Shown here: positions 11,657 to 59,362 of the stretch, piece by piece
Layout of the letters: every line of letters begins with the position of its first letter
How positions within the stretch are numbered: the first letter of the stretch is position 1
Origin: Candidatus Hydrogenedentota bacterium
GTDB lineage: Bacteria > Hydrogenedentota > Hydrogenedentia > Hydrogenedentales > JAEUWI01
Length of the DNA stretch: 64,000 nucleotides
Assembly (NCBI GenBank): GCA_016182605.1
Contig: JACPGE010000073.1
Span: forward strand, 1-64,000
Direction of reading: 5' to 3'
The notes under the pieces: generated by a model
Seen by the model: the letters and a program-made list of their open reading frames with translations, nothing else
What the model was told of the DNA's origin: nothing
The model's database searches: none
Program-made: the position numbers and the translations under genes

Positions 11657-11746
11657 GGAGAGTTGACCGAGTGGACGAAGGTGGCGCCCTGCTAAGGCGT
11701 TGTGCGCGCAAGCGTACCGAGGGTTCGAATCCCTCACTCTCCGCCA
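11657..11746 (+). tRNA. tRNA-Ser (anticodon GCT), phage integration target
   Basis: This is a class II tRNA of 90 nt with encoded CCA. The acceptor stem pairs GGAGAGT (11657-11663) with ACTCTCC (11736-11742). The anticodon loop CTGCTAA (11689-11695) gives GCT, reading AGC/AGT serine codons. A long variable arm (GTTGTGCGCGCAAGCGTAC) follows. The T arm is GAGGG-TTCGAAT-CCCTC (11719-11735). The 3' end overlaps the phage attachment core, and the prophage supplies the sequence after it. Confidence 0.96.
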
Positions 11747-11882: not shown

Positions 11883-12980
11883 TTAGTGGTCTAGCAGGTC
11901 TGCGTATTGCTCGATGTAGTCGACTCCGCCTTCTGCGCGGACGTAGCGCATGGTGGTGGCTATGTCGGTGTGGCCCATCAGCACCTGTAGGGTGGGGAGG
12001 GTGCAGCGGATCGGGGGGTTGGCCATGGCGGTGGCGAAGGAGGATCGGAAGGCTTTGAAGTTGACGCCGTCGTGGCCGGCGGCTGTGAGGGCGCGGGTGA
12101 AGGCGTTATAGAGGCTGTTCTTGGACCAAGGGGTGCCGTTGTCGCGGAGGAAGATGGGATCGGCGGGGCGCATTTTGCGGGCGCCAATGGCGTCTGTGAT
12201 GGCATTTAGGGCGCGGGTAGAAATTTTGTATTTGCGGAGTGCTCGGACTTTGACGCTGACGCGGTCTATGTGTTGGGTCTCCCAAATAACTTGGCTGTAG
12301 GTGAGGCTTATGGCGTCGCTTGGGCGGTTGCCGGTGTAGGCAATAAAGCGGGCGATGCACCAGAGGTTGTATTTTGGGTGGAGGGTGTCGAGGTAGGTCT
12401 TGATCTGGGCGGGGCTGTAGGCTTGGATCTCTTTGTCGTCGACGCGGCCCAGGGGCCATTTGGTGACGGGGTTGGTGGTGAGGATGCCGGCGACGATGGC
12501 TTCGTTTACGGTGGCGCGGATGGCGCTGATGAAATTGTTCGTGGTCTGCTGGGTGTGGGTCTTTTGCAGGTGGAGGGCGTAGCGTTGGATGGTTTCGCGG
12601 TTGACCTGGCTCCAGCGGCCAATATTGTTGGCGTTGCACCAGGATTGCCAGGTGCTGAGGTGGTTTAGGTAGGCGCCGTGGGTGCGGGGTGCGGCGCTGG
12701 CTGTGGGGAGGTAGGTGTAGAGGTAGTGATCGTTGGTCTCGCGGATGCGTGGATCTGGGCCTGCTTGGCGGGTGGGGGCTTCGGGTGGCACGATGGTTTG
12801 GACCATGGCATCGAAGAGGCGCTGGGCTACGGATGGGTCTTTGGTGGGGTATTTGCGGCCGGCGTGGGTGAACTTGAGCCGGGGGCGCTTGCGGGTGCCG
12901 GTGTCGTCGAGGTAGTCGATGATGTAGAAGCCTTCGGAATCCTGGCGGAGCCTGGGTGGGTTGTTGTACTGCTTGGGCAT
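11883..12980 (-). CDS. int: Phage integrase (tyrosine recombinase)
   Basis: The protein has 365 aa and catalyses integration/excision at the tRNA-Ser site. It has an N-terminal arm-binding region, a SAM-like core-binding domain (about 85-165) and a catalytic domain. Visible catalytic residues are R219 (GNRPSD), R312 (FKAFRSSFA), H337 (LMGHTDI) and the nucleophile Y346 (MRYVR). The usual His of the HxxR box is Lys309 here. The ATG at 12980 is chosen over 13022 because AAGGAGG lies 8 nt upstream. The gene ends about 135 nt from attL. Confidence 0.92.
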   Translation of the reverse strand: MPKQYNNPPRLRQDSEGFYIIDYLDDTGTRKRPRLKFTHAGRKYPTKDPSVAQRLFDAMVQTIVPPEAPTRQAGPDPRIRETNDHYLYTYLPTASAAPRTHGAYLNHLSTWQSWCNANNIGRWSQVNRETIQRYALHLQKTHTQQTTNNFISAIRATVNEAIVAGILTTNPVTKWPLGRVDDKEIQAYSPAQIKTYLDTLHPKYNLWCIARFIAYTGNRPSDAISLTYSQVIWETQHIDRVSVKVRALRKYKISTRALNAITDAIGARKMRPADPIFLRDNGTPWSKNSLYNAFTRALTAAGHDGVNFKAFRSSFATAMANPPIRCTLPTLQVLMGHTDIATTMRYVRAEGGVDYIEQYADLLDH

Positions 12981-13084
12981 GGTGGCGGCCTCCTTGTTGG
13001 GTCTGGCTGGGGAGGCTAGCATATCTGGGCGCGGAAAGTATGGTGTTTTTTTGGTGCTTTTTCTTTGCTGGGGGGGAGGGGAGG

Positions 13085-13181: not shown

Positions 13182-13922
13182 TCATTGCTGGGTGCCTTCG
13201 AGGGTGATTTGGCTTTGGGTACGATTGTGTTCCCAATCGAGGGCCTTTTTCTGGGCAAAGTCTATTTGCTCCTTGGTTAGCACTTCGGCGACTTCGTCTC
13301 TCCAGTCTATGAAGGAGGGCTCGTTTGCACTGGCCAAGGCGAGCCATAGATAGGCGGTAGACTTATCTTGGGGAACGCCCCACCCGTTGGAAAAGCACAG
13401 CCCCATAAGTGCTTGGGCGGGGGCAAAGCCTTGCTCGGCAGATTGAATGGCCCAATCTGTTGCCAGTTCGTAGTTCTGCGGAACGCCTTCGCCGCGGGTG
13501 TACATCGTGGCGACCATGAATTGCCCGTATGCCCCGCCTTGGGCCCCGGCTTTCCTGAACCATTCGAAGGCGTCCTTGAATTCCTTGTATTCGTAGGCTT
13601 CTGCTCCGGCTAATCCCAGTGCTTCGATGTTGCCTTTGGCGATCGCGGGCTGTAACCAGAGGACTACCTGATTCACCTGCATTTCTGACCGTGGCTCTTC
13701 CAGGAAGATCTTTGCGAGGGTGAGTTGCTGACTGACGTCTCCTGCCTGTGCTTCTTCCACCATCCATTGGGCTTCTTCAGGCGTGACGTGCTTCAGCACA
13801 GTCTCCTGGAAAAACACTACTTCTGGGTCTGGTGGTTTCGGTGCCGGTGGCTCTGGCGGCGGTGGCGGGGTGCAGGCCCCTATGAGTAGAAGGGTGAATA
13901 CCATAAGGGCCTTGGCTGGCAT
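13182..13922 (-). CDS. Sel1-repeat lipoprotein (prophage moron)
   Basis: The protein has 246 aa. It has a lipoprotein signal peptide with lipobox LIGAC (lipidated Cys17), then a Pro-rich linker, then Sel1/TPR-like alpha-helical repeats (about 60-215, e.g. GNIEALGLAGAEAYEYK, YGQFMVATMYTRGEGVP, APAQALMGLCFSNGWGVP). It should be a membrane-anchored, periplasm- or surface-facing scaffold. It lies between int and the repressor on the lysogenically expressed strand, where prophages commonly carry lysogenic-conversion genes. AAGGGG precedes the start. Confidence 0.8.
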   Translation of the reverse strand: MPAKALMVFTLLLIGACTPPPPPEPPAPKPPDPEVVFFQETVLKHVTPEEAQWMVEEAQAGDVSQQLTLAKIFLEEPRSEMQVNQVVLWLQPAIAKGNIEALGLAGAEAYEYKEFKDAFEWFRKAGAQGGAYGQFMVATMYTRGEGVPQNYELATDWAIQSAEQGFAPAQALMGLCFSNGWGVPQDKSTAYLWLALASANEPSFIDWRDEVAEVLTKEQIDFAQKKALDWEHNRTQSQITLEGTQQ

Positions 13923-14687: not shown

Positions 14688-14972
14688 ATGGTAACGAAAG
14701 CACGACGTAGACGGCGGAAGCTGCCGGTACCTTCGGCGGGTTTGCCGAATCGGTTACGGAAGCTTCGCGTGGACCGTAAGTGGACGCTTTTTGACGTGTC
14801 TTTGCGAACGATGATTCAGCCTTCGGTATTGAGCCAGTACGAACGTGGAAAGCTTGAAGTTTCTCCTGAGCGCGCGCATCTGCTTGCGGAGTTGTTTGGG
14901 GTGCCGGTTTCGGAATTCTGGACGCCTCCGACGTTGGCCGATGTGGCCTATCCGGGGGTGGCGAATGGGTAG
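14688..14972 (+). CDS. Cro-like HTH regulator
   Basis: The protein has 94 aa. A very basic N-terminus (RRRRRK) precedes an XRE-type helix-turn-helix. The pattern is LRKLRVDRKWTLFDVSLRT, then PSVLSQYERGK and SPERAHLLAELFGVPVSEF, as in Cro/CI-family proteins. It has a strong AAGGAGAGG ribosome-binding site. It is the first gene after the early promoter, divergent from the repressor. It overlaps the next gene by 8 nt. Confidence 0.8.
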   Translation: MVTKARRRRRKLPVPSAGLPNRLRKLRVDRKWTLFDVSLRTMIQPSVLSQYERGKLEVSPERAHLLAELFGVPVSEFWTPPTLADVAYPGVANG

Positions 14973-29728: not shown

Positions 29729-29812
29729 GCCCCCCCTGCCCCCCCGCAAGCGGGGGGGAGGAATTGGGGCGAAGAAGAACTCGGACAGGAATGTCCAAGA
29801 TCCTTGGGAAGG
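29729..29812. repeat. Stacked REP-A and REP-B
   Basis: A REP-A hairpin (29729-29758) and REP-B (29781-29810) fill the gap; the downstream ATG follows 9 nt after REP-B. Confidence 0.8.
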
Positions 29813-31702: not shown

Positions 31703-33835
31703 ATGGCGGTGATGGTGTGGACAGAACCTCGCGTGCGGCCGGCGCTGGAGGAGTTGCTGTGGATGCTGGGGGAGGCGCGTTCCCGGGCACGGCGGCCGCT
31801 TTCGCGGTTCATGGTGGAAGAGGTACGGCTGCCGACAGGGCCGATGGCGGGCGAACCTTACAACCTGGCCACACAGCCGTATTCGCGGTTGTTCTGCGCG
31901 GCGGTGGACTCGGGCCGGTACACGGATTTCCTGTCCACGGGCCCTACGCAGAGCGGGAAGACGTTGACGACGGCGCTGGGCCCTATGGCGTGGCACCTCT
32001 TCGAGTGGCAGGAGCCGGTCATTTTTGGGCTGCCGAATGATGATATGCGCAGGGACAAATGGGAAGACGATGTCCTCCCAATGATCGAGGCCACGCGGTA
32101 CCGGGAGCTGTTGCCGACGCGCGGCCCGGGCAGCCGCGGTGGTGATCCGGGCGCCCGGATTCGATTTTCCCACGGGGTGGTGGTCCGGTTTATGACCGGC
32201 GGCGGTGCGGACAAGTCCCGCGCGGGAAAGACGGCGCGGGTGTTGGTGGCGACGGAGGTGGAAGCGTTCGACCTGGTGAAGAGCACGAGCGCGGAGGGTA
32301 CGCAGATTGAGCAGTTGGAGGCACGGACGCATGCGTTTGGGAGCCGTGCGCGCAAGTACAAGGAGTGCACGGTGACGACGAGCACCGGCTACGTGTGGCG
32401 CAAGTACGCCGCGGGCAGTATGACGCGGCCCTGGTATCCGTGCGCGCATTGCGGCACGTGGGTGAGTTTGGACCGGGAGAATTTTCACGGGTGGCAGGAG
32501 GCGGAAACGGAAGTGGATGCGTTCTCGAACGCACGATTGGTGTGTACGGCGTGCGGCGTGCTCTGGACGGACGACGAGCGGCGTTGGAGTGTGGGGCAGA
32601 TGGCGGCGGTGCACCGGGGCCAGCGGATAGTGGAAGCGTCGGGCCCCACCGCAAGCGGGCCCCCCATTCCCCCCCCCGCAAGCGGGGGGGGATGGGAGGG
32701 GAATCTCGGACAGGAATGTCCAAGATCCTTAGGTGTGCCTGTGATCGAGGGGGATGCGCCGAAGACGTTCAGTTTTACGTTGCGGTGGAACGGGGCTGAA
32801 AATTTATTGATGGACCAGGGCCAGATCGGTGTAGCGGAGTGGCAGTCTGCGCGTGCGGAGAAGGCGGACGAGGCGGAACGGGCGATGTGCCAGTTCTACT
32901 GGGCGCGCGCGATCGACGACGACACCGAGAACAGCGTTGATCTGACGGTGCAGAGTCTGACGGAGCGCTTGGGTGATTGGGTGCGCGGTGTGTGCCCGGC
33001 GGACACGATGTGCGTGACGGCTACGCTGGACATGGGAAAACACGTGGCGCATTGGCTGGTGCTCGCGTGGCGGGAGGACGGATCGCCGCACGTGGTGGAC
33101 TACGGGACGATTACTGTGCGGTGGCGGGAGTTGGGGCTGGAGAACGCGATCACGAGCGCGTGCTGGGAATTTGCGGAGATTTGCGAGGCAGGCTGGCTTC
33201 ATGAGAATCAGAGCCGGGTGCCTGATGTGCGCTGGATCGATTCGGGTGGCGAGTGGGCTAAGCAGGTCTATGATTTTTGTAAGACAACGAACTACGCGTA
33301 CAGGCCGATGAAGGGCTTCGGGGCGAGTCAGGATTTTGAAAAGAGCTACATGCAGCCGAAGAGCACGGGGAGCACTGTGCTGCACATCGGGGAGCAGTAT
33401 CACGTGGCGTTTGTGGCAGAGACGGGCGTTCGGTTGATCGAGGTGAATGCGGATTACTGGAAGAGCTACGCATATCGCCGGCTGATGACGCCAGTGGAGA
33501 AGCCGGGTGGTCTGACGCTGTACCGGACGCTGAGCAGGGATCACAGGGCATTCGCGCTGCATTTACTGGCGGAGCGCCGTGAACTGGAGTGGGTGCCTGA
33601 GACGGCGCGATCGTTGGGCCCGCGGAAGGGCGGCTGGCGGGAGCGGTGGGTGAAGGTGAACCGGAACAATCACTGGGGAGACACGTTCTATATGGGGTGC
33701 GCGGCTGCGCATCATGGCGGGGTGCGGTTGGAGATAGATAGCGCTGAGGGTGATGGGGGACCCCGCCCCGTGGTGGCTCCGCCGCGAAGAGTGGCGGGGC
33801 GCAAGCGGCGGGGTGTGGTGATGTACAGGAAGTGA
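31703..33835 (+). CDS. Terminase large subunit (GpA-type) with in-frame repeat insertion
   Basis: The protein has 710 aa, the phage packaging ATPase/nuclease. Walker A is STGPTQSGKT (K86). GpA-type features include VLVATEVEAFD, the zinc-like CAHCG and CTACG, FSFTLRWNGAENLL, the nuclease-region TLDMGKHVAHW, and IDSGGEWAKQVYDFC. Residues about 312-347 are encoded by REP-A plus REP-B (32641-32735): PIPPPASGGGWEGN, then GQECPRSLG. The insertion lies in the linker between ATPase and nuclease halves and keeps the frame. ATG 31703 is used. Confidence 0.92.
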   Translation: MAVMVWTEPRVRPALEELLWMLGEARSRARRPLSRFMVEEVRLPTGPMAGEPYNLATQPYSRLFCAAVDSGRYTDFLSTGPTQSGKTLTTALGPMAWHLFEWQEPVIFGLPNDDMRRDKWEDDVLPMIEATRYRELLPTRGPGSRGGDPGARIRFSHGVVVRFMTGGGADKSRAGKTARVLVATEVEAFDLVKSTSAEGTQIEQLEARTHAFGSRARKYKECTVTTSTGYVWRKYAAGSMTRPWYPCAHCGTWVSLDRENFHGWQEAETEVDAFSNARLVCTACGVLWTDDERRWSVGQMAAVHRGQRIVEASGPTASGPPIPPPASGGGWEGNLGQECPRSLGVPVIEGDAPKTFSFTLRWNGAENLLMDQGQIGVAEWQSARAEKADEAERAMCQFYWARAIDDDTENSVDLTVQSLTERLGDWVRGVCPADTMCVTATLDMGKHVAHWLVLAWREDGSPHVVDYGTITVRWRELGLENAITSACWEFAEICEAGWLHENQSRVPDVRWIDSGGEWAKQVYDFCKTTNYAYRPMKGFGASQDFEKSYMQPKSTGSTVLHIGEQYHVAFVAETGVRLIEVNADYWKSYAYRRLMTPVEKPGGLTLYRTLSRDHRAFALHLLAERRELEWVPETARSLGPRKGGWRERWVKVNRNNHWGDTFYMGCAAAHHGGVRLEIDSAEGDGGPRPVVAPPRRVAGRKRRGVVMYRK
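32641..32735. repeat. REP-A plus REP-B inside the TerL gene
   Basis: CCCCCCCCGCAAGCGGGGGG lies at about 32669-32690, and TCGGACAGGAATGTCC with its AAGATCCTTAGG tail at 32705-32732. The order matches the intergenic stacks. Confidence 0.85.
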
Positions 33836-33840
33836 GGGGA

Positions 33841-33925
33841 GGCCCCTTCGGCAGGCTCAGGGACCGGCAAGGGAATAGGTCGTATAGGACGTATACCGGG
33901 CGGGATGTCCGGGCTCCTGGGGGAA
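33841..33925. repeat. REP-H and REP-C-like
   Basis: CCCCTTCGGCAGGCTCAGGG (33843-33862) is followed by GGGCGGGATGTCCGGGCTCC (33898-33917) in the gap after TerL. Confidence 0.7.
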
Positions 33926-33977
33926 TGCCCGCTGTGAATTGTTCAGGGCTTGGAGAGGCCCTGGTTACTCTTGAAGG

Positions 33978-34445
33978 ATGTCGACCATGACGGAAATAGT
34001 TTTGGAGCGGAGGATGGTGGAAGTGCCCATGGCCGTGGAGACGGAAGGGTACGTGAGTGGGCATGTGGAGGTGCAGTTGCGCACCCGTGAACAGAAGCTT
34101 GCCCTGAAGCGCGTGACGGTGGCGCTGAAGGAAAGCGGGGCGCGATTGGTGAACGGGCGTGTGGTGGATAATGGCGGCGATGCGATCCGCTGGTTGCTGG
34201 AGCAGCTGGCCGGGGTGGGCGTATCGGCGCCGGTGGTGACGTGGGCCGACGCTGCTGAAGCGGCCCCTCCTGCCTCACCGCAATCGGCCCCCCCGGGCCC
34301 CCCCTGCCCCCCCGCAAGCGGGGGGGTGCCGAGTGCGGATGGTTTTCCGCCGGTGCCCAGTGTGCAGGCGGTGTCCGTTGGTGGCCGCCGGGTGAAGGGG
34401 AAGAAAGGGAAGAAAGGTGTCGGCGCCGCCTTGGCCGCCAACTAG
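33978..34445 (+). CDS. Hypothetical protein with REP-A-encoded Pro-rich segment
   Basis: The protein has 155 aa. Residues 1-90 look folded (VEVQLRTREQKLALKRVTVALKE, DAIRWLLEQLAGVG). A Pro/Ala stretch PPGPPCPPASGGV around 108-120 comes from a REP-A copy (34285-34328). A basic tail GKKGKKGVG follows. It lies directly after TerL. Function unknown. Confidence 0.5.
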   Translation: MSTMTEIVLERRMVEVPMAVETEGYVSGHVEVQLRTREQKLALKRVTVALKESGARLVNGRVVDNGGDAIRWLLEQLAGVGVSAPVVTWADAAEAAPPASPQSAPPGPPCPPASGGVPSADGFPPVPSVQAVSVGGRRVKGKKGKKGVGAALAAN

Positions 34446-34452
34446 CCCCCTG

Positions 34453-34580
34453 CAAGCTCCCCCACTGCCCCCCCCCGCAAGCGGGGGCGCAGGGGGGGGA
34501 GGCGGTAGGAGTCTGGAGTCTGGAGGGATAGAAAGAGGGGGAGGCACGCAAAGCCGCAAAGGGGAACAAGATCCTTTGGG
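34453..34580. repeat. REP-A and REP-E between converging genes
   Basis: A long REP-A variant (34459-34500) and REP-E (CACGCAAAGCCGCAAAGG, about 34543-34562) fill the gap between the plus-strand gene and the end of the antisense cassette. Confidence 0.7.
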
Positions 34581-34582
34581 GA

Positions 34583-35050
34583 TTAATCGGGGAGTAGTGC
34601 TGCGGCGGCGATGACGCCGGCGCTGATCTCGTTTTCGGGTGTGGCGTGGATGAGCTTTTGGGCGATGCTGGGGGGTATGTAGATGCTATAGGTTTGGCCG
34701 CGTTCACCGTGTTTTGATGGCCGCCCGGTGGATCGGCCCGTGGGTCGGCCTTTGACGATCTCGGGAGGGAGCCCCCCCTGCCCCCCCGCAAGCGGGGGGG
34801 TGGGCATGGGGGCGTAGGTGGAGAATTTCCGGGCGGTGCTGTAGTAGCGGGCCTGTGGGTTCGACTGGCTGGAGACGGTTTTGGGGCAGTGCCACCAGAC
34901 GGAGCAGGCGGGCGCCACGATGCGTTCCGCGATGCGCTGGGCATCCGCGGGGTCGTGGTAGTTTTTGGTGCCTACGGCGTACCAGCGGCCCGTTTTGGGG
35001 TGTTTGGCGCGGATCGAGAACATTACCTGGTAGTGGGTATTCGGGGTCAT
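34583..35050 (-). CDS. Antisense cassette gene 5: two-part protein joined by REP-A
   Basis: The protein has 155 aa. Residues 1-78 form one module (YQVMFSIRAKHPKTGRWYAVG, DAQRIAERIV). A segment PTPPLAGGQGGLP, encoded by a REP-A copy read in reverse (34771-34801), joins it to a C-terminal part. That part (GRPSKHGERGQTYSIYIPPS, then AQKLI) looks like a ribbon-helix-helix DNA-binding protein. AGGAG precedes the ATG, which overlaps the upstream gene by 4 nt. The repeat may have fused two genes or replaced a linker. Confidence 0.6.
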   Translation of the reverse strand: MTPNTHYQVMFSIRAKHPKTGRWYAVGTKNYHDPADAQRIAERIVAPACSVWWHCPKTVSSQSNPQARYYSTARKFSTYAPMPTPPLAGGQGGLPPEIVKGRPTGRSTGRPSKHGERGQTYSIYIPPSIAQKLIHATPENEISAGVIAAAALLPD

Positions 35051-35364
35051 TGGGTGGGCTCCTGTTTCAGCCGGTGGCGACGGATTTTTACGGCGGTTTG
35101 TGAGATGCCGAGCTTTTCCGCCGCTGTGGCGTTATTGTGTTGTATTACAGTTTTATTCATGGCGGGAGACCATGTGATCTCTCGCCGGAAGGCGGGGATG
35201 CCGAGCGCCACGCGGCGGCGGCGGACAAACTCCGCAGACCTCCCTATGTCGGCTGCTATGGCCGCGTCGGGCTCTTTGCCTAACCGCTTGAGTGTGCGCT
35301 TGTCGAGGGATTCTTTTGCCGCGTCTGCGGTCATCACAGATCGGGGTGTATGCTTTGTGCGCAT
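35047..35364 (-). CDS. Antisense cassette gene 4: HTH-like protein
   Basis: The protein has 105 aa. It has two helix-turn-helix-like halves. The first is AIAADIGRSAEFVRRRRVAL (about 35-54). The second is AAEKLGISQTAVKIRRHRLK near the C-terminus. It is very basic. It is likely a DNA-binding regulator, possibly of the cassette or the surrounding late genes. GAGGG lies upstream of the ATG. It is coupled to gene 5. Confidence 0.65.
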   Translation of the reverse strand: MRTKHTPRSVMTADAAKESLDKRTLKRLGKEPDAAIAADIGRSAEFVRRRRVALGIPAFRREITWSPAMNKTVIQHNNATAAEKLGISQTAVKIRRHRLKQEPTQ

Positions 35365-35367
35365 CGT

Positions 35368-35598
35368 CTAAGCCCTCGGCTTGTACCAGTCGGGGGCCTG
35401 GTATCCGGCGCGATACTCGGCGGCGATGCGGCGGCGGGTGGCGGCGGCATGCTCGTAGGGCGCTGCCTTATATGGCCCGCCGAGCATGCCGTTGGTTCGC
35501 TCGGCAGTCTCATAGCAGGCGCGGGCGTAGCGGTCCAGAATGCGGGCTTTCGCTTCTTGTTCGGCGGCGCAGGCGTCGAGTTCTTCTTGGGTTTTCAT
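35368..35598 (-). CDS. Antisense cassette gene 3: small helical protein
   Basis: The protein has 76 aa, Ala/Glu/Arg-rich and helical (EELDACAAEQEAKARILDRY, HAAATRRRIAAEYRAG). AGGAG lies before the ATG. It ends 3 nt before gene 4. No family recognised. Confidence 0.55.
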   Translation of the reverse strand: MKTQEELDACAAEQEAKARILDRYARACYETAERTNGMLGGPYKAAPYEHAAATRRRIAAEYRAGYQAPDWYKPRA

Positions 35599-35629
35599 GG
35601 TTTTTGGCTCCTTTTTGGGGGTTAGTCTA

Positions 35630-35839
35630 TTACCAGGCTTTTCCGACGGGACTGTTCCCGTCAGTATTTAGGTAACCGATCTGTCCGTCACTTGCCCGAT
35701 ACCATTGGGCAAATATTTGATCATCAGGGTATTCTCGCGCCGCAGTGATTGCCGCCGCCCGTGCCGCATTGTCTGTTTTGCACTCGGATAATATCTCCGA
35801 TTTTCCGCCTGCCGCTACTCTCACAATCTTGATCTTCAT
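35630..35839 (-). CDS. Antisense cassette gene 2: small protein
   Basis: The protein has 69 aa. The pattern is KIKIVRVAAGGKSEILSECK, a helix, then FAQWYRASDGQIGYLN. GGAGAGAGAAG lies directly before the ATG, and a CTCCCC/GGGGAG hairpin lies just upstream (about 35850-35870). Unknown function. Confidence 0.55.
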   Translation of the reverse strand: MKIKIVRVAAGGKSEILSECKTDNAARAAAITAAREYPDDQIFAQWYRASDGQIGYLNTDGNSPVGKAW

Positions 35840-35880
35840 CTTCTCTCTCCGTGGGGAGGTTGCCCTCCCCGGTTGGGGGG

Positions 35881-36114
35881 TTAGTCCTGGACCTCGCGGG
35901 CCGCGCCTGCGGCTGCACGGACAATGCGGTTGAGGTCTGATTTTTGGGCGTACTGGAGCGCGCGGGCGCCCATCCAGGCCGGGGTAATGGTATAACTGTA
36001 GTCTCCGTAGACTATGATCTCGCCGGTTTTCCCCGCTACGGCTATCGTGCCCGCCGTGCGAGCCGCCTCGCCCTCAACTCGCGTTACCGTTATCTGGATT
36101 TTGTCGTTTTCCAT
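35881..36114 (-). CDS. Antisense cassette gene 1: small beta-rich protein
   Basis: The protein has 77 aa from ATG 36114 with GGGAGA upstream. It has beta-strand-like sequence (KIQITVTRVEGEA, GEIIVYGDYSYTIT) and then an Ala-rich helix. It is the first gene behind the strong minus-strand promoter at 36164-36192. Unknown function. Confidence 0.6.
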   Translation of the reverse strand: MENDKIQITVTRVEGEAARTAGTIAVAGKTGEIIVYGDYSYTITPAWMGARALQYAQKSDLNRIVRAAAGAAREVQD

Positions 36115-36163
36115 CGTTCTGTCTCCCTGTTGTCTCAGCGCCCCGTGCGCCATCTATGTTTGA

Positions 36164-36192
36164 ATTATACAATGTAGATTGGAGAATTGCAA
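36164..36192 (-). promoter_or_regulatory. Near-consensus promoter of the antisense cassette
   Basis: On the minus strand there is -35 TTGCAA (36187-36192), exactly 17 bp, then -10 TATAAT (36164-36169). It lies in an AT-rich island unlike the surrounding DNA. It should be active in the lysogen with host sigma-70-type polymerase and opposes late transcription. Confidence 0.75.
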
Positions 36193-36597
36193 GAGGGAAA
36201 TTTTGTTCAGTGGAAGGGCGAGGAGTGTGGAGGAGGAGGAGGAGATCTCTCCGTCGCGTGGCTCCGTTCGAGATGACAGGGTGTGGGTGGCGTCCGGGGT
36301 GTCCGGGCTGTCCGGTTCCGGACGGGGCGGAAGGGGTTCCAATTATTCCGGGGGCGTGCTACGGTTGGGGCTGATAAAGTTGAATTCAGGTATTCCCCCC
36401 CACCCAGGGGCGGTCTTCGGTGATGTCCGGGGCCGCCCCGCCCTTTTTTCGCGGCGGTGATGGAGATGGAGTTTTTCCCCGTGGATGCGTGTGCTACCTC
36501 CTGCCCCCGGAGCCCTCACCGGTGCATGTGTCCACGGGGAGATTTTTAGGGATGGGGACCTTGGTAACGAGGCTGTAGGGCCTACGTGGAGGTGGTG
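36193..36597. other. Gene-free gap with REP-D, hairpin and REP-G fragment
   Basis: It contains REP-D (36239-36282, GAGATCTCTCCGTCGCG to TTCGAGATGACAGGG). A hairpin GGGGCGG..CCGCCCC lies at 36407-36439 with TTTTTT at 36444-36449, a possible plus-strand terminator. A partial REP-G (GGGGACCTTGGTAACGAG) is at 36553-36570. No gene seen. Confidence 0.6.
36407..36449 (+). terminator. Possible intrinsic terminator in the late-operon gap
   Basis: A 7-bp GC stem (GGGGCGG with CCGCCCC), a 19-nt loop, and TTTTTT four nt after the stem. The long loop makes it weaker than a canonical terminator. Confidence 0.35.
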
Positions 36598-36900
36598 ATG
36601 GCGTTGCTGGATGCGGATGCGACATTTGAAGAGATTCAGGCCGCGGTGCTGGGCAATGCGGACTATGACGTGTCCAACAGCACTGAGAAGGCGCGTGCGT
36701 TCATTCAGGCGTGCCGGATGTATCTGATCCTGCTGACGGATGAAACGGAGGCGGGCGCCAACCGGGTGCGTGAGGATCCGGTGAAGGTGCGGGAGATGCT
36801 GACGCGGGCCGAGGTTTGGCTGAGGCCGCGGGATACTTCGGGTGGCATGGGCCGGACGCCGGGTCACGTGCGGCGATTTGACCTTCGACGGTTTCGGTGA
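36598..36900 (+). CDS. Small head protein at gpW position (putative connector)
   Basis: The protein has 100 aa. GGAGGTG lies 6 nt before ATG 36598. It is helical: ALLDADATFEEIQAAVLGNA, EKARAFIQACRMYLILLTDE, VREMLTRAEVWL. In lambda the small head-tail joining protein W sits between TerL and portal, as here, but sequence similarity to gpW is not evident to me. Confidence 0.5.
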   Translation: MALLDADATFEEIQAAVLGNADYDVSNSTEKARAFIQACRMYLILLTDETEAGANRVREDPVKVREMLTRAEVWLRPRDTSGGMGRTPGHVRRFDLRRFR

Positions 36901-36907
36901 GTGGCGA

Positions 36908-36942
36908 GGACCCCCCTTTATCCCCCCGCAGGCGGGGGGAGA
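36908..36942. repeat. REP-A before the portal gene
   Basis: CCCCCCTTTATCCCCCCGCAGG followed by CGGGGGGAGAG. It is a REP-A variant with GCAGGC in place of GCAAGC. Confidence 0.7.
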
Positions 36943-37049
36943 GAGGAAGCCAATCGGGAGATTGGCGGTCCCAGTAGGACTTGGCGATCCCAGGGAACGG
37001 ATAATCGGAGACGGTGGTGAAGCGATCTGGACGACACAGAGACGCAGCG

Positions 37050-38627
37050 ATGAATCCGGTAGCGGCCTTTTCCGGGCTGCGATCGGATTACGAGCAGGTG
37101 AAGGCCAATCGCTGGCGTTCGTTTATCATAGGTGGGTGCGGTCAAGGTACTGACGGCGACTTCTCCTATCGGAGCGACGCCGACTATTACCGCATCATGT
37201 CCCTGGCGCGCCAGTTCGACGAGAATGATTCGCTGATTGGCCAGGGGCTGGACCGTCTTGAGCGCAACGTTGTTCAGGACGGGATGCAACTGGACCCAAA
37301 GACGGGGCTCGCGGAACTGAACACCTACCTCGCCGCGAAGTGGAGCGCCTGGTGCGACACCCCCGAGGCCTGCGATATGTCGCAGGAACGGGACTTCCAC
37401 GGGATGGCCCGGATGGTGCTGCGGAGCGTAATCCGTGACGGTGACATTCTTGCGCTGATGACGAACACGGGCGCGGTGGAACTGATCGAGGGCCACCGGC
37501 TCAAGACCCCGCACCGCACCCGGAAATCCGTGGTGCATGGCATCCTGATCGACCGGTACCGGCGGAAGCTTGAGTACTGGATTACGCGATCGGACCTGGG
37601 CATTCTGGGCACGGTGACCCGTGCCGATCAGGTGGAAAAGGTGCCCGCGCGCGACCGTGCCGGCAACCTGCAGGCCCTACACATTTGCGATCCCCGGCGC
37701 GTCACCCAGACCCGTGGTGTCAGCGCGCTGGTGCGGGTCTTCGATATGATCGGCATGCTGGGCGATATCAATTTTGCGAAGCTGGTGCAACAGCAGATTC
37801 TGTCCTGTTTTGCCATTCTCCGGACTCGGCCCCTCGGCGGCGCGGACGGTTTTGGTCAACCCACAGGCTACGGTGACAGCACTACCGAGGCCAAGGCTGA
37901 CGGTAGCGGTACGGAATTGCTCGAGGGCATTGGCCCGGGCATGGAGGTCACCGGCGAGCCCGGTGAACAACTCGAGGGGTTCTCCCCGAACGTGCCAGGC
38001 CAGGGGTATTTTGAACAGGCGAAATTAATCATAACGATCATCGCCATCAATCTCGGGTTGCCCGTGCACGTACTGTTGCTCGACCCGAGCGACACGAATT
38101 TTTCCGGCTGGCGTGGTGCCATCGACCAGGCCCGCTTGGGCTGGCGCCACTTGCAGTACGGTATTTTGGTCAAGCAATTCTACCGGCCTGTGTACCAATG
38201 GAAACTGCGGGATTGGCTGGTTACGGACCCGGAATTGCGCCGGTTGGTGGCGACCCTCGACAATCCCGAGGATGTTTTCAAGGCGCGTTTTCTCACTCCG
38301 CGCTTCCCCTATATTCAACCCGAGGTGGATGCGCAGGCGGACGCGGAGATCATCGGCAAGATGCTCGACTCCCGCCGGGGCGTGCTCGCGATGCGCGGAC
38401 GCGATATCGAGCACGTGGATCAGGAGATTGTTGATGACAATGCGTCCCTGATCACGCGCGCGCTGGAGAAGCTGGCCGAGATCAAGGGAAAGTTTGGGGA
38501 GTTGGCGGAGGATGTGAGCTGGCGCGATATGCTGGGCCTGTGGGAAGTGCAGCCCGGGAGTGCGCCGGCGGCGGCGGGTCAAGACGGCGCCAAGGGGCGT
38601 AAGGTTCCGAAAGGGAAGGCGGCGTAG
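37050..38627 (+). CDS. Phage portal protein (lambda B family)
   Basis: The protein has 525 aa. It forms the dodecameric DNA-entry vertex. Family-typical segments are ADYYRIMSLARQFDENDSLI, GQGLDRLERNVVQDGMQLDP, RDGDILALMTNTGAVELIEG, HVLLLDPSDTNFSGWRGAID and KARFLTPRFPYIQPEVDAQAD. ATG 37050 is given; a GTG at 37017 has a better-spaced GGAG and would add 11 residues. It precedes the protease gene as in lambda. Confidence 0.92.
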   Translation: MNPVAAFSGLRSDYEQVKANRWRSFIIGGCGQGTDGDFSYRSDADYYRIMSLARQFDENDSLIGQGLDRLERNVVQDGMQLDPKTGLAELNTYLAAKWSAWCDTPEACDMSQERDFHGMARMVLRSVIRDGDILALMTNTGAVELIEGHRLKTPHRTRKSVVHGILIDRYRRKLEYWITRSDLGILGTVTRADQVEKVPARDRAGNLQALHICDPRRVTQTRGVSALVRVFDMIGMLGDINFAKLVQQQILSCFAILRTRPLGGADGFGQPTGYGDSTTEAKADGSGTELLEGIGPGMEVTGEPGEQLEGFSPNVPGQGYFEQAKLIITIIAINLGLPVHVLLLDPSDTNFSGWRGAIDQARLGWRHLQYGILVKQFYRPVYQWKLRDWLVTDPELRRLVATLDNPEDVFKARFLTPRFPYIQPEVDAQADAEIIGKMLDSRRGVLAMRGRDIEHVDQEIVDDNASLITRALEKLAEIKGKFGELAEDVSWRDMLGLWEVQPGSAPAAAGQDGAKGRKVPKGKAA

Positions 38628-58124: not shown

Positions 58125-58432
58125 GCTATTACGTGGACCTGGATGGGACCCTCGCACAGTATGAGCAGTGGGAGGGTCCCGAGGTTATCGGAGAGCCTGT
58201 GCCTGCGATGATGGAGCGGGTGCGGGCGTGGCAGCGGGCGGGGAAAACGGTGAAGATTTTCACGGCGCGCGCGAGTGTGCCGGAGAATATTCCGCCGGTG
58301 GAGCGGTGGCTGGCGAAGCATGGGCTGCACCAGTGCGAAGTGACGGCGATCAAGGGATTCGACGGGCTCGAATTCTGGGACGATCGCGCTGTGACGGTGG
58401 AGAAAAACACAGGAAGGATACTGACACGATGA
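58121..58432 (+). CDS. HAD-family phosphatase-like protein
   Basis: The protein has 103 aa. The HAD motif I DLDGT is at 6-10, motif II is KIFTAR near 47, and FWDDRAVTVEKNTGRIL is a motif IV-like end. Such short HAD proteins occur in phages, perhaps as nucleotide phosphatases. The GTG start overlaps the stop of the previous gene. It is coupled to the CAP gene. Confidence 0.75.
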   Translation: MSYYVDLDGTLAQYEQWEGPEVIGEPVPAMMERVRAWQRAGKTVKIFTARASVPENIPPVERWLAKHGLHQCEVTAIKGFDGLEFWDDRAVTVEKNTGRILTR

Positions 58433-59241
58433 TTTGGAAATACTTGCTGATAGTGATGGCGCTTTGCGTGAGTGCGTGGGGCCAGCCTGCGGAACTGACG
58501 CGGGAGCGGGCCATGGAACTGTGGCCGGTGTATGTGGCGACTCAGGCGGCGCCGAATGCGCCTGGGGCAATCGTGGAACGGCTGAACATGTATCGGGCGG
58601 CCGCGGGGTTGGGGCCCGTGGCAGTGGATGCGGCGCTGAACCCGGGGAGCCAGCAGTGTGCCCGGGTGTTGGCGTTGAATCCGACGTGGGTGATCTCGCA
58701 TACATTGCCGCGGCCGCTGAAGGGCTGGACGGCCGCGGCGTCGACGGCTGCGAAAAATGGGTGTATAGACCGGTATGACGATGGGGCCCGGGCGGTGGCG
58801 GATTTCATGCGGGACTGGGGCCTGACGTCGCTGAATAAGTACGTGGGACATCGGCGCTGGCTGATGCACCCGGGGCTTCAGACGGTGGGTGTGGGAGCTG
58901 TGGCGTCGAGCCTGGGGAATCCCGCGGCTGTGTGCATTTACGTGCGGACGCCCATGGGCGCGTCAACGCAGGCGGTGGCCTGGCCGCCTGCGGGGGATGT
59001 GCCGATCGGGTGGGTGCCGGAGAGGTGGTCCTACAGTGCCCCGGGCTCCGATTTGAGCGCCGCGGCGGTGTGGATGGATGGCCGGCGCGTTAGCGTGGCG
59101 CGGCAGGCCGGGACGAGTCCGCCGGGGGTGATCGTTTGGCAGCCAACTTTGCCTTTCAACGTGGAGAGTCGCCACGTGGTGCGGATCGAGGGCCTGCCTG
59201 GGGGGCGGGTGGAGTATGAGGTGCGGAGGTTCAGGCCGTGA
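58429..59241 (+). CDS. Secreted CAP/SCP-domain protein (moron)
   Basis: The protein has 270 aa. Signal peptide residues 1-18 (cleavage near VSAWG). The CAP domain follows: IVERLNMYRAAAGLGPVAVD, ISHTLPRPLKGW with the conserved His, YDDGARAVADFMRDWG, and VGHRRWLMHPGLQTVGVG. The C-terminal ~90 residues are beta-rich, Ig-like (HVVRIEGLPGGRVEYEVRR). The export signal and last position before attR suggest lysogenic conversion rather than virion function. Confidence 0.8.
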   Translation: MIWKYLLIVMALCVSAWGQPAELTRERAMELWPVYVATQAAPNAPGAIVERLNMYRAAAGLGPVAVDAALNPGSQQCARVLALNPTWVISHTLPRPLKGWTAAASTAAKNGCIDRYDDGARAVADFMRDWGLTSLNKYVGHRRWLMHPGLQTVGVGAVASSLGNPAAVCIYVRTPMGASTQAVAWPPAGDVPIGWVPERWSYSAPGSDLSAAAVWMDGRRVSVARQAGTSPPGVIVWQPTLPFNVESRHVVRIEGLPGGRVEYEVRRFRP

Positions 59242-59344: not shown

Positions 59345-59362
59345 TCCCTCACTCTCCGCCAT
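59345..59362 (+). other. attR core
   Basis: TCCCTCACTCTCCGCCAT, identical to 11730-11747; here it is preceded by phage sequence rather than the tRNA body. Confidence 0.93.

What the first reader, a model, noticed from the sequence alone, without database searches (positions are those of the whole stretch)
34583..36192. Antisense five-gene cassette in the late operon, with its own strong promoter
Between TerL and portal, five small genes run against the late operon behind TTGCAA-17-TATAAT, each with its own ribosome-binding site and tight spacing. Two look DNA-binding (double HTH, ribbon-helix-helix). The promoter should be on in the lysogen. Such lysogen-expressed cassettes often encode superinfection exclusion or anti-phage systems. 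None of the five is recognisable, so this is the best candidate for a new system here.
Basis: partly seen in the sequence, partly recalled or inferred. Interest (0 to 1): 0.75.

Follow-up and report, generated by a model that had tools for sequence, protein, structure and literature searches.

The report
Antisense accessory cassette in a prophage
Five small, previously unseen genes with their own strong promoter sit backwards at a spot where related bacterial viruses carry quite different optional genes, so they are probably a swappable extra that works while the virus lies dormant in its host; what it does is not known.

Summary
Five minus-strand ORFs lie at 34583-36114. All five starts have a Shine-Dalgarno motif (4.8% of minus-strand ATGs in the window do). 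One of only three promoter-like sites scoring at least 10/12 in 64 kb, TTGCAA-17-TATAAT, precedes them. The host is an apparently intact 47.6-kb prophage: tRNA-Ser, integrase, 18-bp att repeats at 11731 and 59345.

Sister phages (portal 36-42% identical) keep the two flanking genes but carry other, plus-strand genes between them: a DNA methyltransferase, or a methyltransferase with several further small ORFs, or one small gene. The site is therefore a variable accessory locus and the window's antisense cassette is one occupant. This supports an accessory ("moron") cassette and argues against a packaging or structural role.

None of the five proteins reaches a curated cut-off in Pfam or NCBIfam, matches PADLOC or a solved structure, or has a confirmed relative in the collections searched. 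o4 has a double helix-turn-helix. The ribbon-helix-helix of o5 rests on low-confidence secondary structure only.

Best reading: lysogen-expressed moron operon with an o4-type regulator, built like Tab of phage JBD26. An anti-phage role is plausible but unshown; a membrane exclusion protein is unlikely. The host has CRISPR-Cas, but none of the spacers examined targets the prophage.

The parts
36164..36192 (-). sigma-70-type promoter of the cassette, TTGCAA-17-TATAAT
   Evidence: 10/12 match, one of three such sites in 64 kb; consensus match only, no expression data
35881..36114 (-). o1, 77 aa, soluble small protein without homologues
   Evidence: SD AGGGAGA; codon frame score 20.2, best of six; no family hit above cut-off; fold pLDDT 45, predicted mainly strands then a C-terminal helix
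35630..35839 (-). o2, 69 aa, small protein; weak resemblance to phrog_30184 (unknown function)
   Evidence: SD GGAGAG; PHROG E = 0.0058; codon score weak but still best of six frames
35368..35598 (-). o3, 76 aa, small protein without homologues
   Evidence: SD AAAGGAG; codon score 15.9; no family hit above cut-off
35047..35364 (-). o4, 105 aa, basic (pI 11.5) double helix-turn-helix protein, probable regulator of the cassette
   Evidence: sub-threshold HTH hits, best HTH_AsnC-type E = 0.00046 at 79-100; phrog_323 D5-like transcriptional regulator E = 0.0016; 31-37% identity in alignment to multi-HTH proteins of Pseudomonas plasmids (tblastn E = 0.03-0.4)
34583..35050 (-). o5, 155 aa, basic (pI 9.9); N-terminal strand-strand-helix, C-terminal two short helices (possible ribbon-helix-helix); carries an in-frame copy of the phage's palindromic repeat at 34783-34798
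   Evidence: SD AGGAG; codon score 24.1; fold pLDDT 37; no relative found
33978..34445 (+). conserved left flank of the accessory site (155 aa, unknown)
   Evidence: homologue in sister phage L035 (42% over 65 aa, E = 3e-10), weak in L037 (E = 0.004)
36586..36900 (+). conserved right flank: small gene in the gpW position just before portal
   Evidence: homologues directly before portal in L035 (2e-9) and L036 (7e-6), and in L037 through L035 (29% identity, E = 1e-12)
36407..36449 (+). terminator-like hairpin and T run on the late-operon strand, between cassette and right flank
   Evidence: stem predicted, but z = -0.93 against shuffles, so weak

Best explanation
The cassette is an accessory ('moron') operon occupying a variable site between the TerL module and the gpW-position/portal module of a temperate siphophage-like prophage. 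Shown by sequence: five ribosome-binding-site-led ORFs on the strand opposite to the late genes, a near-consensus sigma-70 promoter, and replacement of the insert by unrelated genes in sister phages. Inferred: because it does not depend on late transcription, it is transcribed in the lysogen as one mRNA; the double-HTH protein o4 binds DNA and most likely tunes the cassette's own promoter; o1-o3 and perhaps o5 are small soluble effectors that change the lysogen's fitness, with interference with other phages or with host defence the most probable benefit. Rough likelihoods: accessory cassette 0.85; expressed in the lysogen 0.7; anti-phage or counter-defence function 0.4.
For: Coding and promoter evidence. 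Intact integrated prophage with tRNA-Ser, integrase, repressor/cro-like divergent region and 18-bp att repeats. Variable site: L035 has an N6/N4 methyltransferase, L037 a methyltransferase plus several small plus-strand ORFs, L036 one small gene, between the same two flanking genes. In 50 portal-family loci the TerL-portal distance has a median of 365 bp, against 3179 bp here. Precedent: Tab of phage JBD26 is a minus-strand late-operon gene with its own promoter, expressed from the prophage and anti-phage (PMC10884400); P2-like phages carry a defence hotspot next to the portal gene (PMC9122126).
Against: No RNA data; promoter called from a consensus. No homologue of any of the five in known defence libraries or elsewhere, so function is inferred from position only. 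o2 has weak coding statistics. The accessory genes in the sister phages are on the plus strand, so antisense orientation at this site is seen only here. No significant operator dyad in the promoter (best dyad reached by 17% of shuffles).
Confidence: 0.62

Rival explanations
1. The cassette is an anti-CRISPR (acr-aca-like) operon: o1-o3 are inhibitors of the host's CRISPR-Cas and o4 is the HTH autorepressor.
For: Architecture of several small orphan proteins followed by an HTH gene behind one promoter matches acr-aca operons as described in PMC9410906. The host has a type I-C cas locus (L028), a second cas1 locus with long arrays and a further array. An imperfect dyad AATT..CCAAT-4-ATTG..AATT lies inside the core promoter.
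Against: None of the 77 candidate spacers, nor the few-spacer type I-C array, was found to match the prophage beyond short chance stretches, so there is no self-targeting that would require an inhibitor; the arrays are incomplete. o4 is a double HTH, not matched to a known Aca family (Aca models were not available as such). The dyad is not significant (17% of shuffles reach it). o5 follows o4, whereas aca is usually last.
Confidence: 0.12
2. A dedicated superinfection-exclusion or phage-defence system made of several of the five proteins.
For: Position and promoter like Tab of JBD26 and other morons (PMC10884400).
Against: No membrane segments (highest 19-residue hydropathy mean 0.84), no enzymatic motif, no PADLOC match.
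Confidence: 0.25
3. A phage regulatory module: antisense transcription and the two putative DNA-binding proteins modulate the late operon or the lysis-lysogeny choice.
For: Antisense orientation in the late operon; DNA-binding o4 with a weak resemblance to the D5-like regulator family; a terminator-like hairpin on the late strand beside it.
Against: Absent from sister phages at this site, so not part of the shared late-gene control; no k-mer of 8 or more shared between the cassette promoter and the immunity region.
Confidence: 0.15
4. Spurious or decaying ORFs on the strand opposite to non-coding phage DNA.
For: o2 has weak coding statistics; o5 is interrupted in frame by a copy of the phage's dispersed palindrome.
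Against: Five of five SD motifs, annotated frame best of six in all five, no frame breaks, promoter in the right place.
Confidence: 0.05

Closest known systems
Tab moron of Pseudomonas phage JBD26 (PMC10884400)
   Same: Small orphan protein gene in the late operon beside a terminase gene, on the minus strand, with its own promoter, expressed from the prophage
   Different: One 83-residue gene between terS and terL with a partner antagonist gene; here five genes between the TerL module and portal; no sequence relation was detected (PADLOC and phage collection searches were empty, but Tab itself was not compared)
P2-like prophage defence hotspot between gpA and the portal gene gpQ (PMC9122126)
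   Same: 1-5 kb locus of high turnover between conserved phage genes near portal
   Different: Different phage group; here the occupants seen are methyltransferases and orphan small genes, and no known defence system
acr-aca operons (PMC9410906)
   Same: Several small orphan genes and an HTH gene behind one promoter
   Different: HTH gene is fourth of five and doubled; no significant operator; no self-targeting spacer found

Membership tests
Prophage moron cassette | Absent or replaced at the same site in related phages | tested here: met
   Flanking genes conserved in L035, L036 and (right flank, weak left flank) L037, insert replaced by unrelated genes
Prophage moron cassette | Own promoter independent of the late operon | tested here: met
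   TTGCAA-17-TATAAT, 10/12, antisense to the late genes; sequence match only
Prophage moron cassette | Own terminator | tested here: not met
   No terminator-like site on the minus strand in 33500-37500; morons without a recognisable terminator are known, so this is a usual rather than a strict feature
Prophage moron cassette | Transcribed in the lysogen | not testable with these tools
   needs RNA-seq of a cultured lysogen
acr-aca operon | Small orphan proteins with an HTH gene in the same operon | tested here: met
   o4 double HTH
acr-aca operon | Inverted repeat bound by the HTH protein within the core promoter | tested here: inconclusive
   26-bp imperfect dyad between -35 and -10, reached by 17% of shuffles
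acr-aca operon | Inhibits a CRISPR-Cas system | not testable with these tools
   host encodes CRISPR-Cas, but no spacer examined matches the prophage
Membrane superinfection-exclusion protein | Transmembrane or signal segment | tested here: not met
   highest 19-residue Kyte-Doolittle mean 0.84
Known anti-phage defence system | Match to a PADLOC-DB model | tested here: not met
   0 families at E up to 1 for all five

The most novel reading that the evidence does not exclude
The five genes form a previously undescribed lysogen-expressed system that blocks other phages or neutralises host CRISPR-Cas, installed antisense at an accessory hotspot beside the portal gene of a phage group infecting a poorly studied bacterial lineage.
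Probability: 0.2. Interest if true: 0.6.

Novelty: new member of a known kind. Interest (0 to 1): 0.38.

Why it matters
Accessory loci next to packaging and portal genes are a productive source of new defence and counter-defence genes. This locus gives a defined place to look in a poorly sampled phage group: whatever lies between the homologue of the 33978 gene and the gpW-position gene is variable and worth cloning. The five proteins are orphan families, so a function would be new at the protein level even though the arrangement is a known kind.

Tried and rejected
Pfam, PHROGs, NCBIfam and PADLOC scans of all five: only sub-threshold hits. Peptide-pattern scans of IMG/VR for o1, o2, o4, o5 and of 85,000 genomes for o5 and o1: no confirmed relative; these reach close relatives only, and o3 was not scanned this way. 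tblastn of the five joined proteins against phages and plasmids: only weak multi-HTH hits for o4 plus one weak phage hit judged to be chance. 68 genomes of the same order: one match (E = 0.006) inspected and judged noise. Solved structures: nothing meaningful. Structure prediction of o5 and o1 without alignment: pLDDT 37 and 45, too poor for fold searches, which were therefore not run. Spacers against the window: nothing beyond 16-nt chance matches; matches of the 'array' at the start of L011 are a low-complexity tandem repeat, not CRISPR. Automatic search for minus-only stretches in 50 TerL-portal gaps: the measure does not flag the window itself, so its empty result means nothing; only the gap lengths are used. 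Some TerL calls in that script are uncertain: for L035 it took the methyltransferase for TerL and reported 450 bp, so the gap median is approximate. Shared operator sequence between cassette promoter and immunity region: none.

Full report
Setting. The window lies in contig 129 of a 6.76-Mb genome. Its phylum was not established; the pattern of relatives suggests a small, mostly metagenomic lineage (my guess, untested: Hydrogenedentota). From 11731 to 59362 it holds a prophage: tRNA-Ser at 11657-11746, an 18-bp repeat of the tRNA end at 59345, integrase at 11883-13022 (Pfam Phage_integrase), a candidate repressor on the minus strand near 14.1-14.5 kb divergent from a cro-like HTH gene at 14688, DnaB, methyltransferases, TerL and portal. 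It looks complete.

The observation. Five minus-strand ORFs fill 34583-36114. All five starts carry an SD motif against 4.8% of minus-strand ATGs. In a strand-symmetric codon model the annotated frame is the best of six each time; o2 is the weakest. The promoter TTGCAA-17-TATAAT is one of three sites of at least 10/12 in 64 kb, both strands; the other two are in the immunity region. The cassette is therefore real coding DNA, very probably with its own promoter. Genes are separated by 41, 31 and 3 nt and a 4-nt overlap. Transcription itself was not tested.

What it is. Portal-based search of IMG/VR with a four-sequence alignment returned three sister phages far closer than the rest: L035 (42%), L036 (40%), L037 (36%). 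In the window the order is TerL, 33978 gene, cassette, 36586 gene, portal. In L035 the homologues of the 33978 gene (E = 3e-10) and of the 36586 gene (E = 2e-9) enclose an N6/N4 methyltransferase on the plus strand; in L037 a methyltransferase and several small plus-strand ORFs, not all with strong coding scores; in L036 one small gene. No homologue of o1-o5 was found in those records. In a wider set of 50 portal-family loci the TerL-portal gap has a median of 365 bp, against 3179 bp here; TerL was called crudely there, so this is approximate. The site is thus a variable accessory locus, and the antisense cassette is one occupant.

The proteins. No family above cut-off in four libraries, no solved relative, no relative in phages, plasmids, 68 genomes of the same order, or by close-relative scans of viral contigs and genomes. 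o4 shows two HTH units: 31-37% aligned identity to multi-HTH proteins of Pseudomonas plasmids (tblastn E 0.03-0.4, so suggestive), sub-threshold HTH families, and a D5-like regulator hit at E = 0.0016. o5 has a predicted strand-strand-helix start and two C-terminal helices at pLDDT 37, so a ribbon-helix-helix is possible, not shown. None has a membrane segment.

How it probably works. The promoter is independent of late control, so the operon should be active in the lysogen; o4 probably regulates it; the remaining small soluble proteins are the likely effectors. The nearest worked-out precedent is Tab of JBD26: a minus-strand late-operon gene with its own promoter, expressed from the prophage and blocking tail assembly of incoming phages (PMC10884400). 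P2-like phages show that a locus next to portal can be a defence hotspot (PMC9122126). An acr-aca reading fits the gene layout (PMC9410906), and the host does encode CRISPR-Cas, but no spacer examined matches the prophage and the promoter dyad is not significant.

Verdict. Observation confirmed; interpretation partly supported. It is a new member of a known kind, a moron cassette at an accessory hotspot, with orphan proteins. Function is open.

Noticed in passing
window 29741-51940; copies at 29741, 31192, 32673, 34309, 34472, 34783, 42370, 43507, 45177, 45528, 47036, 51925: Dispersed palindrome CCCCCGCAAGCGGGGG: 12 of the 13 exact copies in the 6.76-Mb genome are in this prophage, 11 of 12 in the same orientation, some inside genes (TerL, 33978 gene, o5). 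The 13th lies beside a CRISPR array on contig C70.
   Followed up: partly
window 29784, 30376, 31655, 32709, 42958, 47137, 52481, 54941, 56862: A second dispersed phage repeat, CGGACAGGAATGTCC(AAGATCCT), mostly between genes; a related GACAGGAATGTC is at the degenerate end of the C70 CRISPR array in the same genome.
   Followed up: no
window 13182-13922 (-): Sel1-repeat protein with a lipoprotein-like start (GAC), between integrase and repressor on the minus strand: another candidate lysogen-expressed gene.
   Followed up: no
window 58168-59241 (+): CAP-superfamily (cysteine-rich secretory protein) domain gene next to the right attachment site, possible lysogenic conversion gene.
   Followed up: no
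L037 1845-5545: About 3.7 kb of small orphan plus-strand ORFs at the same accessory site of a sister phage; worth a separate look.
   Followed up: partly
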